A DNA stretch of 13,924 bases, from NCBI GenBank assembly GCA_026984415.1, contig JALSSE010000173.1, positions 1 to 13,924 of the forward strand, read 5' to 3'. Below, piece by piece: positions 8,806 to 12,684 of the stretch. The stretch comes from Hydrogenothermaceae bacterium (GTDB lineage Bacteria; Aquificota; Aquificae; Hydrogenothermales; Hydrogenothermaceae). A model generated the notes under the pieces. It was not told where the DNA came from. It saw only the letters and a program-made list of their open reading frames with translations, and ran no database searches. Each line of letters opens with the position of its first letter. Positions within the stretch are counted from its first letter, which is position 1. Both the position numbers and the translations under genes were made by a program.

Positions 8806-10368
8806 TTAAGCACCTGCAGGTAGTAAGAAAACAAAATCATCTTTTTCTAAAATAAAAGTGTCTCTTGGGTTCATTATAACTTTCTTTCTCCTTTCTATTG
8901 CAATAGGTAGATAATTTTTCCCCCTTGAAAATCTAAGTAATTCACCAAAGTTCGTAAACTTTCCTAACCTTGAAACTTTTATTTTTTTAATTCCCTGTTC
9001 CTCACTAATAAATGTGTTTACGAGATTTGTTAATCCCGGGTTCAGTAAACTGTTGAACATTAACCTACCCATCAACTGTCCGTGTATCAACACCTCTCTT
9101 ATTCTTAACCTTTCTTTAAAAATACTGGCATCTTCGTCTAAAAGAACCTCAACATAAAGATTTGCTTCTGGATTTAATGTTCTAATCAGCATAGCAGCCA
9201 ATGCAGTTCTTGCATCTATATTTCTTTCTGTAAGTCCTTCTTCCCTTTCTCCTACAATAAGGACATCTGATGCTTTTTCAATCCCAACATCAAGTAAAAT
9301 ACTTTCATGGATAAATTCACCTTTTTTGTAAAGGATAAAGTCTGATAATTCTATATCTAACTGTTCCTTTTCAAAGGAAGTTATAAGAACTACTCCTTTT
9401 TCTTTATCAATTTCGTGAGCCATGATTTGCTCTAAAACTTCTTCTGAAGTTTCGTTCCATCCACAAATTACTATATGATTTTCTAAGTCTGGCATTTTTA
9501 ACCCACCTTGTTTTAATGTCATAAGTCTGCTGACAAGAGCAGCTGAAAATGTACCTGTTAATGATGCAACTAAAATAATACCACCACCAATCATAATAGA
9601 TGTAGCAATCCGTGCCTCATCAGAAACAGGTGCAATATCTCCAAAACCTACGGTTGATATTGTAACAATTCCCCAGTATATTGCATGCCACATTGATTTG
9701 AACTGTTCTGTATTTCCTGCGTTGTATTCAAAAATATAAACTATCAGGGAGAAAATGATTATCCACGCAAAAATTGAAGTAAATATAAAGGCAAATAGAA
9801 AACTCTGTTCTTTCAATGCTACAAATAAGCTTCTAATTGCCCCACCATATCTAATAATCTTTAGAAGTCTTAATACCCTTAAAATTCTAAATGCTCTGAG
9901 AGGTCTGATAATTGGTAAAATAGCCAGTAAGTCAATAATTGCATAAGGGGTAATCATCCATTTAAGTTTAGCCTTTAAAGCAAACATAAAAGCCTTATAA
10001 TGAAGTTTTATAGGATTTGTTTCTTCGGAAGTATCTAAAAGTTTTCTATAATCATCTATAAAATTTGATATTACCCACCATCTTAGTACATATTCAACAA
10101 CAAAAAACCATAGTGCGATATATTCGTAGTCGTCTATAAAATTGTTAAGGTCTGGTGGAAGTTTTGGTTTTAATCCCGGAACATACTCAATTACAACACC
10201 TATTGAAGATGTTATAACAACAAAAAGTGCGAAAATATCGTAAATCTGTTTATACGGGCTGTTTTCATTTTCAAGGACATTGTATATCCTTATTTTTACA
10301 CTTCTGTATATAGTTTTTAGTTTGTTTAATTTAGAATCTGCAAAAGGGTCCCATCTTTGTTTTAACAT
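8806..10368 (-). CDS. Six-helix voltage-sensor potassium channel with C-terminal RCK domain
   Basis: This 520-residue inner-membrane protein has, in order: S1 (about 41-61), S2 (81-100), S3 (138-153), an S4 helix with Arg or Lys at every third position (155, 158, 161, 164, 167, 170, 173), S5 (188-213), pore loop with selectivity filter TVGFGD (239-244), S6 (255-278), then an RCK domain opening with HIVICGWNE (298-306), as in the MthK group, and an RCK_C-like end (about 465-517). The filter is GFG rather than the commoner GYG; both conduct K+ in known families. An S4-bearing pore with RCK suggests gating by voltage and a cytosolic ligand. The ATG at 10368 directly follows the TAG of the CBS gene, with a weak ribosome-binding site. 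K+ selectivity and gating are inferred from motifs. Confidence 0.93.
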   Translation of the reverse strand: MLKQRWDPFADSKLNKLKTIYRSVKIRIYNVLENENSPYKQIYDIFALFVVITSSIGVVIEYVPGLKPKLPPDLNNFIDDYEYIALWFFVVEYVLRWWVISNFIDDYRKLLDTSEETNPIKLHYKAFMFALKAKLKWMITPYAIIDLLAILPIIRPLRAFRILRVLRLLKIIRYGGAIRSLFVALKEQSFLFAFIFTSIFAWIIIFSLIVYIFEYNAGNTEQFKSMWHAIYWGIVTISTVGFGDIAPVSDEARIATSIMIGGGIILVASLTGTFSAALVSRLMTLKQGGLKMPDLENHIVICGWNETSEEVLEQIMAHEIDKEKGVVLITSFEKEQLDIELSDFILYKKGEFIHESILLDVGIEKASDVLIVGEREEGLTERNIDARTALAAMLIRTLNPEANLYVEVLLDEDASIFKERLRIREVLIHGQLMGRLMFNSLLNPGLTNLVNTFISEEQGIKKIKVSRLGKFTNFGELLRFSRGKNYLPIAIERRKKVIMNPRDTFILEKDDFVFLLPAGA

Positions 10369-10758
10369 CTAATCTTTAATACTTCCTATTAGTTCTTTTA
10401 TAATATCATGCATAGATATTATACCTTCAAGTTCATTATTATCGGTAACTAATAACCTTTTAATTCCCATTTTAATCATCAATTTTGCTGCGTGCTTTAC
10501 TTCCAATTCTTTTGAAATACTTAAAGCAGGTTTTTTATAAATATCGTACACATTAAGTAAATCTATATCTCCTTCTTCGGCAAAAATAGCCTTAATAATA
10601 TCTGTGTAAGTAATCATTCCATAGGCATCGTGGGGATTTTTTTTGTTTACAACTATAGATTTTACGTTTTTTGATTCCATTAATTTTAAAGCTTCTTTAA
10701 GTGAAGCGGTTGGCTCAATAATGACAACTTCCCTATTCATTAAATCCTTTACAAGCAT
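10369..10758 (-). CDS. Stand-alone CBS-pair (Bateman) protein
   Basis: The 129 residues are almost entirely two CBS domains (about 5-60 and 72-126), the module that binds adenine nucleotides or S-adenosylmethionine in many proteins. Each repeat ends with the expected nucleotide-contact pattern: GMITYTD (47-53) and GIISMHD (112-118). There is no catalytic or membrane domain, so it is probably a regulatory subunit acting on a partner. It starts at ATG 10758 with GGAGGAG close upstream, 14 bp after the PII-like gene, and its TAG abuts the channel ATG. This tight packing makes the channel or the DUF1538 transporter its likely target. The ligand cannot be predicted from the sequence. Confidence 0.92.
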   Translation of the reverse strand: MLVKDLMNREVVIIEPTASLKEALKLMESKNVKSIVVNKKNPHDAYGMITYTDIIKAIFAEEGDIDLLNVYDIYKKPALSISKELEVKHAAKLMIKMGIKRLLVTDNNELEGIISMHDIIKELIGSIKD

Positions 10759-10772
10759 TGTTTCTCCTCCAT

Positions 10773-11120: not shown

Positions 11121-12640
11121 AGTCTTCCCTCCTTATTTTTAAATTTAGAAACAAGTTCAGAAAGTATCCCGTACCCCATAACTGTAACCATTGGAAAAAG
11201 AGAAGCAAACGCTATAAGTCCAAATCCGTCTATTAATGGGTTTCTTCCGGGGATATTTGTTGCAAGTCCTAATCCAAGGGCAGCAACAAGAGGAACTGTT
11301 ACAGTAGAAGTTGTTACCCCTCCAGAATCGTAAGCAATTGGAATAATATAACGAGGTGCAAAATAAGTCATTATAATCACAACTATATAACCTACAATAA
11401 TGTAATAATGAATTGAATCACCTGCAACGATTCTATAACACCCTAAAGCAATCCCAATAGCAACACCTATTGCAACAAAAACCCTCAGTAAAAAGTCATT
11501 TATTTTTCCAGATGAAACCTCTTTTGCCTTTAATGCAACTGCTATAAGTGCAGGCTCTGCCATTGTGGTAGAAAATCCAATAAGAAATCCAAATATATAA
11601 ATTAACCAGACATTATTCATTTCGGTTAATTGTAGTGCCATTGTTTCACCAATAGGAAAAAGTCCTTCTTCAAGACCAACTAAAAAAGCATATAATCCTA
11701 ATATGACAAGTAAAATTCCAAATGCTATTTTATGTAAATGGGGTATTTTTTGTTTTATTATCAAAAACTGGAATAAAAATATTACAGTGAATATTGGAAT
11801 AACATCTTTTACAACTGCAACTAAATCCAATATCATTTCTAAAAGCCAATGATGTTCTGGCTCAATCTCAGAATAAGTGACCTCAGCCTGTGGTAAATTT
11901 GAAGCCTGTTCAACTAAAGAACTATCTCCTGAAGCTAAAGAATAAACTAAAATCCCATATGCCTGAACAAATATCATCGGAGTTAAAGATGCAAAAGCAA
12001 TAAGACCAAAACCATCAATAACAGGATTTCGCCCTTTAATACTTGAAGCAAGTCCAACTCCAAGGGCTGTAACAAGAGGAACAGTAACGGTAGAAGTCGT
12101 TACCCCTCCAGAATCATAAGCAAGACCAACAATTTCTGGTGGTGCAAAGAAAGTAACTGTTACAACGATAATATATCCTACAATTATATACCAGTGGATA
12201 GGATGACCAAGAATAATCCTTAAAACACCAAGTGCTATTGCAAAACCAACAGACAAAGCCACAGTAATCCTTAACCAGAATGCATCTATTTTTCCCGAAC
12301 TAATAGCAGCAGCTTTATCTGCAATTGCAATTAATGCAGGTTCAGCAACAGTTGTAGAAAATCCTATGAGAAAAGCAAATAATAAAAGCCAGAAAAGAGA
12401 ACCTTTTCTTGCAAACTCATACGCTAAATTTTCACCTAACGGGAAAATTCCTACTTCTAATCCTTGAATAAAAATGGCCAATCCAAATGCAACAATTGAA
12501 AGCCCAATAATTATTGAAAATAAATTTTCAGGAATTTGCTGTATTATGGCTATTTGAAAAAATGCAATTACTACTATAATTGGTAAGAGGTCTCTTATAG
12601 AACCTTTTAATAAATTTAAAAATAGTTTTAACTGTCCCAT
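11117..12640 (-). CDS. Membrane transporter made of two fused DUF1538 domains (UmpAB-like)
   Basis: This inner-membrane protein has about 507 residues in two homologous halves (about 14-235 and 275-497, offset 262), each with several membrane helices. Both halves carry GFSTTxAEPALIA, AYDSGGVTTSTVTVPLV and NPxIDGFGLIAFASL. An acidic soluble linker (239-268) joins them. From memory, separate DUF1538 proteins UmpA and UmpB of Halomonas act together as a Na+(Li+,K+)/H+ antiporter; here both halves are one chain, so cation/proton exchange is the best guess. I chose ATG 12640; TTG 12643 directly before it is possible, but GAGGGG then has no spacing. Residue numbers count from the TTG. Overlap with the PII-like gene (ATGA) suggests that the two work together. 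Confidence 0.88.
   Translation of the reverse strand: MGQLKLFLNLLKGSIRDLLPIIVVIAFFQIAIIQQIPENLFSIIIGLSIVAFGLAIFIQGLEVGIFPLGENLAYEFARKGSLFWLLLFAFLIGFSTTVAEPALIAIADKAAAISSGKIDAFWLRITVALSVGFAIALGVLRIILGHPIHWYIIVGYIIVVTVTFFAPPEIVGLAYDSGGVTTSTVTVPLVTALGVGLASSIKGRNPVIDGFGLIAFASLTPMIFVQAYGILVYSLASGDSSLVEQASNLPQAEVTYSEIEPEHHWLLEMILDLVAVVKDVIPIFTVIFLFQFLIIKQKIPHLHKIAFGILLVILGLYAFLVGLEEGLFPIGETMALQLTEMNNVWLIYIFGFLIGFSTTMAEPALIAVALKAKEVSSGKINDFLLRVFVAIGVAIGIALGCYRIVAGDSIHYYIIVGYIVVIIMTYFAPRYIIPIAYDSGGVTTSTVTVPLVAALGLGLATNIPGRNPLIDGFGLIAFASLFPMVTVMGYGILSELVSKFKNKEGRL
11262..11337 (-). repeat. Copy B of the internal DUF1538 coding repeat
   Basis: This 76-base stretch in the second half of the DUF1538 gene matches 12048-12123 in the first half at 67 of 76 positions, by my hand alignment without gaps. 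It encodes the YDSGGVTTSTVTVPLV core. Most differences are silent third-position changes. It comes from the internal gene duplication and is not a mobile repeat. Confidence 0.85.
12048..12123 (-). repeat. Copy A of the internal DUF1538 coding repeat
   Basis: This is the partner of 11262-11337, in the first half of the same gene. Within the 53-base core (12071-12123 against 11285-11337) only five bases differ, all without changing the protein. The rest of the two halves has diverged much more at DNA level, so this core is either under strong constraint or kept similar by gene conversion. Confidence 0.85.
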
Positions 12641-12656
12641 CAACCCCTCATATTTG

Positions 12657-12684
12657 ATTATATAATAATGATATCAAATTTCAA
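12657..12684 (-). promoter_or_regulatory. Strong promoter for the DUF1538-PII-CBS-channel-hemD operon
   Basis: On the minus strand, TTGAAA (12679-12684, five of six) is followed by 16 bases and a perfect TATAAT (12657-12662). It fills the 51-bp gap between epmA and the DUF1538 gene. Transcription would start near 12650, leaving only about 10 bases before the ATG at 12640, with GAGGGG (12644-12649) inside that very short leader. No other good promoter is seen before hemD ends at 8102, so the five genes are probably one transcript. Confidence 0.68.

What the first reader, a model, noticed from the sequence alone, without database searches (positions are those of the whole stretch)
8806..12684. 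Candidate cation-homeostasis module: fused DUF1538 transporter, PII-like protein, CBS pair and voltage/RCK K+ channel in one operon
Seen: four genes with ATGA overlap, 14-bp gap and zero-base TAG/ATG junction behind one strong promoter. Known from memory: DUF1538 pairs (UmpAB) were reported as Na+(Li+,K+)/H+ antiporters; PII proteins regulate membrane transporters by direct contact; CBS pairs and RCK domains sense nucleotides or ions. Inference: an electrogenic or proton-coupled cation exchanger and a K+ channel are expressed in fixed proportion and controlled by two soluble sensors, perhaps reading energy charge. I know of no description of this four-part set as one system.
Basis: partly seen in the sequence, partly recalled or inferred. 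Interest (0 to 1): 0.75.

Follow-up and report, generated by a model that had tools for sequence, protein, structure and literature searches.

The report
PII-controlled cation/proton antiporter module
A family of bacterial salt-and-proton exchangers nearly always travels with its own PII-type regulator, sometimes as one fused protein, which suggests a little-noticed way of switching such exchangers; the potassium channel beside it here is probably just a neighbour.

Summary
The set is really three plus one. A PII gene lies beside DUF1538 in 133 of 141 scorable loci (five phyla) and PII plus CBS in 107 of 141 (three phyla). In 274 gammaproteobacterial genomes, 83 of the 85 with this PII family have DUF1538. 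In one lineage PII is fused to DUF1538: 464 relatives matched, all 120 listed with both domains. The channel is different: it adjoins the module in 4 of 17 DUF1538-bearing Aquificota genomes plus this window, and elsewhere normally sits between epmA and hemD (16 of 20 fetched loci), so the module looks inserted into that operon. Best reading: an Na+(Li+,K+)/H+ antiporter gated by a dedicated PII-like trimer and a CBS nucleotide sensor. Antiport rests on one published relative; gating, ligand and direction are inferred. c-di-AMP is unlikely as the general ligand: its synthase domain was found in 0 of 40 tested DUF1538-bearing genomes outside Aquificota.

The parts
11117..12640 (-). Fused DUF1538-DUF1538 transporter (UmpA+UmpB type, 507 aa from the ATG; in-frame TTG at 12643); two tandem repeats 54% identical
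   Evidence: Pfam DUF1538 x2, E 1.8e-143; NCBIfam UmpA 517 bits (cut-off 490, met) and UmpB 459 bits (cut-off 500, not met); repeat identity
10773..11120 (-). PII-like protein, 115 aa, short flexible T-loop, C-terminal helix
   Evidence: Pfam P-II just over cut-off; predicted structure pLDDT 83.6 with PII fold
10369..10758 (-). Tandem CBS-domain protein, 129 aa
   Evidence: Pfam CBS x2, E 6.9e-27; closest solved sequence is the CBS part of CBS-CP12
8806..10368 (-). Voltage-sensor K+ channel with RCK domain, 520 aa; neighbour of the module, probably not a conserved part
   Evidence: Pfam Ion_trans, Ion_trans_2, Slo-like_RCK, TrkA_N; Kv/MthK/BK sequence matches
12657..12684 (-). Candidate sigma-70-like promoter TTGAAA-16-TATAAT upstream of DUF1538
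   Evidence: 11 of 12 match; only partly conserved in L001
12644..12649 (-). Candidate ribosome-binding site GAGGGG before the DUF1538 ATG
   Evidence: Direct reading; GAGGG kept in L001
12692..13639 (-). EpmA-like EF-P lysine ligase: left flank of the probable insertion
   Evidence: NCBIfam PRK09350 333 bits (cut-off 264); normal upstream neighbour of the channel in relatives
8102..8803 (-). hemD, uroporphyrinogen-III synthase: normal downstream neighbour of the channel
   Evidence: Pfam HEM4

Best explanation
The core is a three-gene module: a DUF1538 (UmpAB-type) cation/proton antiporter, a dedicated PII-like regulator and a CBS-pair adenylate sensor. Most likely a PII trimer docks on the cytoplasmic face of the transporter through its conserved T-loop (K44, F46, G48) and gates it, as GlnK does to AmtB and SbtB to SbtA. 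The CBS pair reads an adenine nucleotide and either tunes that interaction or adds a second switch. The channel gene belonged to an epmA-channel-hemD operon into which the module was inserted in this lineage; any functional tie to the channel is incidental or secondary. Shown here: gene content, conserved linkage, fusions, predicted PII fold, repeat structure, the channel's usual neighbourhood. From published work on one relative: Na+(Li+,K+)/H+ antiport. Inferred: trimer docking, gating, nucleotide ligand, direction of control, direction of insertion.
For: PII beside DUF1538 in 133 of 141 scorable loci and PII+CBS in 107 of 141 (7 duplicates and 6 truncated loci set aside). PII family in 85 of 274 gammaproteobacterial genomes, 83 of them with DUF1538, Fisher p 5e-59 (relatedness not corrected); the 7 DUF1538 genomes without a match at that threshold have a more distant PII gene beside DUF1538 (L211-L213, L215-L217, L236). 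Rearranged order PII-CBS-DUF1538 in L218. Natural DUF1538x2-PII fusion, 649 aa; a search with its PII part matched 464 proteins in that length class, all 120 listed with both domains. PII fold by structure search: SbtB, CPII, GlnK. UmpAB of Halomonas has Na+(Li+,K+)/H+ antiport in vesicles, with no PII or CBS gene reported (PMC5484666: abstract, passages and Discussion). Channel: orthologues in 41 of 121 Aquificota genomes; epmA upstream and hemD downstream in 16 of 20 fetched loci not beside the module.
Against: No complex was modelled. The canonical PII nucleotide/2-oxoglutarate residues (K90, R101, R103; numbering recalled) are not present in the alignment to solved PII chains, so the ligand is open. 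A covariation test gave no T-loop signal (5 of the top 100 inter-protein pairs, 14.8 expected; 92 rows). UmpB's NCBIfam cut-off is not reached. The fusion's T-loop differs from the free PII's. The review notes PII control of transporters appears restricted to trimers, while UmpAB was reported as a hetero-dimer. CBS is absent in 26 of the 133 PII-bearing loci, so it is not essential to the pair. One origin of the channel adjacency followed by loss is not excluded.
Confidence: 0.6

Rival explanations
1. A true four-part system: antiporter and K+ channel expressed together and balanced by the two sensors.
For: CBS/channel spacing from a 1-base overlap to a 7-base gap in the window, L001, L006, L007 and L008; all 17 DUF1538-bearing Aquificota genomes also hold the channel, against 24 of 104 without DUF1538; the adjacency may have arisen twice (2 changes on both trees).
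Against: In 13 of those 17 genomes the channel lies elsewhere (in G130 it is split over two short contigs but follows EpmA); normal channel neighbours are epmA and hemD; no related channel beside the module outside Aquificota in the loci scored. Genome-level co-occurrence is confounded by shared descent.
Confidence: 0.12
2. The PII and CBS proteins are c-di-AMP receptors (DarA/DarB-like), coupling the antiporter to the c-di-AMP potassium circuit.
For: c-di-AMP controls K+ homeostasis in many bacteria and binds DarA and DarB (PMC7900238, start of abstract in search listing); PstA/DarA is PII-like (PMC4475381, start of abstract in listing), and that DarB is a CBS pair is recalled. The DAC synthase domain is in 14 of 15 tested Aquificota genomes with DUF1538.
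Against: DAC domain in 0 of 40 tested DUF1538-bearing genomes from Campylobacterota, Gamma- and Alphaproteobacteria, so it cannot be the general ligand; it remains possible in Aquificota.
Confidence: 0.08
3. DUF1538 in this clade transports something else (for example an anion or bicarbonate, as in SbtA-SbtB), and the UmpAB activity is not representative.
Against: 69-91% identity to the fused homologues of Aquificota and Campylobacterota in alignment A2, the same E/D/R/K residues in both repeats, and the NCBIfam UmpA model over its cut-off; the carbonic anhydrase was not found beside the module in any of 31 genome loci searched with it.
Confidence: 0.2

Closest known systems
UmpAB of Halomonas zhaodongensis (DUF1538 Na+(Li+,K+)/H+ antiporter, PMC5484666)
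   Same: Same family; two homologous halves, each a DUF1538 unit
   Different: Here both halves are one polypeptide; the paper's main text has no mention of PII or CBS
GlnK-AmtB (PII-gated ammonium channel)
   Same: Transporter and PII protein encoded together; direct T-loop block is the model mechanism (PMC10710835 passages)
   Different: Different transporter family; canonical PII ligand residues absent here; a CBS protein is usually added; natural fusion in one lineage
SbtA-SbtB (bicarbonate transporter and PII-like protein)
   Same: Secondary transporter plus PII-like partner in one operon; SbtB is the top structure match (PMC8352866 passages)
   Different: No solved chain, SbtA included, matches DUF1538 by sequence at E<=1; no C-terminal CGPxGC loop in this PII
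MthK/BK/Kv-type K+ channels (for the channel gene)
   Same: S4-like arginine repeat and TVGFGD filter read from the sequence, RCK domain, sequence matches
   Different: Not a conserved part of the module

Membership tests
DUF1538 / UmpAB antiporters | Two DUF1538 repeats | tested here: met
   PF07556 in two stretches, 475.5 bits against 22.6
DUF1538 / UmpAB antiporters | NCBIfam equivalog cut-offs for UmpA and UmpB | tested here: inconclusive
   UmpA 517.2 against 490 met; UmpB 458.6 against 500 not met, so the protein is filed as DUF1538 family, not as a certified UmpB equivalog
DUF1538 / UmpAB antiporters | Cation/proton antiport | not testable with these tools
   Published for Halomonas UmpAB only, as far as the papers seen go
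PII superfamily | Ferredoxin-like PII fold with T-loop | tested here: met
   Predicted model pLDDT 83.6; the 50 Foldseek rows shown are all PII or PII-like chains, E 9e-6 to 7e-5, TM by query 0.50-0.63
Canonical GlnB/GlnK | ATP/2-oxoglutarate residues K90, R101, R103 (recalled numbering) | tested here: not met
   Opposite these residues of 2eg1 the family has position 87 mostly I/L/V, position 98 G in all rows, position 100 mixed A/S/D (108 rows)
SbtB | C-terminal CGPxGC redox loop (conserved in some SbtB only) | tested here: not met
   No such motif in the window protein
c-di-AMP receptors DarA/DarB | Host makes c-di-AMP (DAC domain) | tested here: inconclusive
   Present in 14 of 15 Aquificota genomes, absent in 40 of 40 others with DUF1538; the window's own genome is not held
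CBS-pair proteins | Two CBS domains | tested here: met
   G47, P77, V104, G112 at 100% in 108 rows
   4 of 17 DUF1538-bearing Aquificota genomes; a related channel in 0 of 127 scored loci of other groups, one unrelated channel (L183) flagged

The most novel reading that the evidence does not exclude
DUF1538 antiporters are a new class of PII-gated transporter: nearly every member works with a nucleotide-sensing partner (free PII plus CBS, tandem PII proteins, a fused PII domain, or a fused cytidylate-kinase-like domain), so cation/proton exchange is switched directly by adenylate state. This would extend PII control to cation/proton antiporters, and the PII-fused proteins would be single-chain regulated antiporters.
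Probability: 0.45. Interest if true: 0.75.

Novelty: new variant of a known kind. Interest (0 to 1): 0.6.

Why it matters
PII proteins are known to gate Amt, NrtABCD, UrtABCDE and SbtA (table in PMC10710835, passages seen); the passages show no cation/proton antiporter controlled by PII. DUF1538 occurs in about a third of sampled gammaproteobacterial genomes (90 of 274), yet its one characterised member was studied without these regulators. The conserved PII partner, the PII-fused form and the kinase-fused form make a direct test of nucleotide control of Na+/K+-proton exchange possible.

Tried and rejected

Of the long Verrucomicrobiota 'PII' proteins, L226, L228 and L230 match only my own profile, not Pfam; L227, L229 and L231 were not run against Pfam. 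The 8 scored loci without PII nearby: L022, L023, L024, L029 (kinase-like fusion), L206 (PII fused), L173 (PII about 1.4 kb away), L209, L220. Of 9 plasmid records with DUF1538 I looked at 4. The 20 channel loci are 20 of the 37 channel genomes without the adjacency; 13 of the 20 genomes hold DUF1538 elsewhere, 7 lack it.
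Full report
Observation. Pfam and NCBIfam identify them as a channel with voltage-sensor, pore and RCK domains, a CBS pair, a borderline P-II protein and a double DUF1538 protein. The transporter's start is better placed at the ATG at 12640, because the preceding TTG codon is CTG in the 90%-identical relative L001. The run continues on the same strand: the epmA-like gene ends 48 bases upstream and hemD starts 2 bases downstream of the channel stop. 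The promoter candidate scores 11 of 12 but is only partly conserved, and such sites are at chance level in the region.

Conservation of the module. The search for related loci returned 31 genome loci, and the genome search found DUF1538 in 17 of 121 Aquificota, 90 of 274 Gammaproteobacteria, 16 of 190 Alphaproteobacteria, and 9 of 115 genomes of the phylum around G012, a genome whose record is labelled Verrucomicrobiia. I scored 147 unique loci after dropping 7 duplicates; 6 end before a PII gene could be seen. Of the remaining 141, 133 have a PII gene within 700 bases on the same strand and 107 have PII and CBS: Aquificota 14 and 13 of 14, Campylobacterota 14 and 13 of 15, Gammaproteobacteria 81 and 71 of 87, Alphaproteobacteria 16 and 10 of 16, Clostridia plasmids 2 and 0 of 2, Verrucomicrobiota 6 and 0 of 6, one Patescibacteria-labelled genome 0 of 1 (the window itself is not counted). 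Public plasmid annotation independently names the neighbour a P-II family nitrogen regulator in the four records I opened: Paraclostridium, Methylocystis, Chelativorans and Peptoclostridium.

Evidence beyond synteny. The PII family (profile A1, E<=1e-12) occurs in 85 of 274 gammaproteobacterial genomes; 83 of these have DUF1538 (the exceptions are G228 and G321), and 7 of the 90 DUF1538 genomes lack a match at that threshold (Fisher p 5e-59, not corrected for relatedness). Those 7 have a more distant PII gene beside DUF1538. In L218 the order is PII-CBS-DUF1538 instead of DUF1538-PII-CBS. In a Sulfurimonadaceae genome that also has a separate three-gene set (L009), a second DUF1538 protein of 649 aa ends in a P-II domain; the search with that domain gave 464 hits of similar length, and all 120 listed carry PF00543 and PF07556, the named ones being Sulfurimonas, Arcobacter and other Campylobacterota. 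Four loci instead have DUF1538 fused to a cytidylate-kinase-like domain and no PII nearby (L022, L023, L024, L029; Pfam run on L024 only). Tandem PII genes or long PII-like proteins accompany other DUF1538 branches.

The proteins. The two DUF1538 repeats are 54% identical over 245 residues, and the same charged positions recur in both (E71/E333, E101/E363, K110/K372, R125/R387, R142/R404, D177/D439, R205/R467, D210/D472). The transporter model is confident (pLDDT 86.8, pTM 0.86) but matches no solved fold well. The PII model has the PII fold with a low-confidence loop at 40-45. In 108 rows from DUF1538-PII-CBS loci, K44, F46, G48 in the T-loop and G26, A27, G98 are 91-100% conserved, while the residues that bind nucleotide phosphates in canonical PII are absent (canonical numbering and roles recalled). 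The CBS protein is closest among solved sequences to CBS-CP12. The window's PII, CBS, DUF1538 and channel match no PADLOC model.

The channel. Some match exists in 103 of 121 Aquificota genomes, most of them distant; orthologues at about 370 bits or more are in 41. All 17 DUF1538-bearing genomes are among the 41, against 24 of the 104 others. In 4 of the 17 the channel follows CBS; in 13 it lies elsewhere. I fetched 20 channel loci that are not beside the module (of 37): 18 have an EpmA homologue directly upstream, 18 have HemD directly downstream, 16 have both. The window and L001 therefore read epmA-[DUF1538-PII-CBS]-channel-hemD, which is most simply an insertion of the module between epmA and the channel. 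L006, L007 and L008 have module-channel-hemD behind a different upstream gene. Trees need two changes for the adjacency, but one origin with a loss is not excluded.

Ligand. DAC, the c-di-AMP synthase domain, is in 14 of 15 tested Aquificota genomes with DUF1538 and 0 of 40 others (the same search found it in 11 of 14 control genomes). c-di-AMP may act in Aquificota but not generally. Adenine nucleotides are the most economical guess for both PII and CBS; this is inference from the families, and the missing canonical residues count against a standard ATP/2-oxoglutarate site.

Mechanism. Halomonas UmpAB showed Na+(Li+,K+)/H+ antiport with an optimum at pH 9, with no PII or CBS gene mentioned (PMC5484666: abstract, passages and Discussion seen). 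So the module's PII and CBS are more likely regulators than transport subunits. A PII partner encoded next to, and sometimes within, the transporter points to direct gating on the model of GlnK-AmtB and SbtB-SbtA (PMC10710835 and PMC8352866, passages seen). That review notes PII control seems restricted to transporters that work as trimers; whether DUF1538 forms trimers is unknown (co-immunoprecipitation showed a UmpA-UmpB hetero-dimer), a point against a simple copy of those systems. The covariation test did not help, and no complex was modelled.

Verdict. Observation confirmed; interpretation partly supported. The interesting object is the DUF1538-PII(-CBS) module, not the four-gene set. New variant of a known kind: PII-controlled transport, apparently extended to a cation/proton antiporter family.

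Noticed in passing
window 8102-13639; L245-L264: epmA-channel-hemD is a recurrent, often overlapping gene order in Aquificota relatives (16 of 20 fetched loci), linking an EF-P-modifying enzyme, a K+ channel and a haem enzyme for no obvious reason.
   Followed up: partly
L022:6189-8372, L023:8004-10184, L024:7785-10133, L029:7920-10148: DUF1538 fused to a C-terminal cytidylate-kinase-like P-loop domain, with no PII or CBS nearby (Pfam on L024 only).
   Followed up: partly
L208:5221-6408, L215:8659-9813, L228:2867-4033, L230:5493-6623: Long proteins (376-395 aa) beside DUF1538 that look like tandem PII-like domains; Pfam sees P-II above its cut-off in only one of these four.
   Followed up: partly
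window 7269-8027 and 5887-7272: Beta-carbonic anhydrase with an N-terminal signal-like stretch (judged by eye), overlapping the start of a DUF4139 protein gene; an exported beta-type enzyme would be unusual.
   Followed up: no
L183:6203-7477: In one alphaproteobacterium an Ion_trans_2 channel of another type lies just upstream of umpA on the same strand.
   Followed up: partly
protein P0122 (metagenome): A 759-aa DUF1538 protein scoring almost as high as the query's own copy although only 65% identical in its best local alignment; possibly an extra repeat.
   Followed up: no
window 1303-1572: 89-aa ORF on the - strand with no Pfam or NCBIfam match.
   Followed up: no
window 13830-13906: tRNA-Met (CAT) on the - strand at the window end, upstream of the epmA-like gene.
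   Followed up: no
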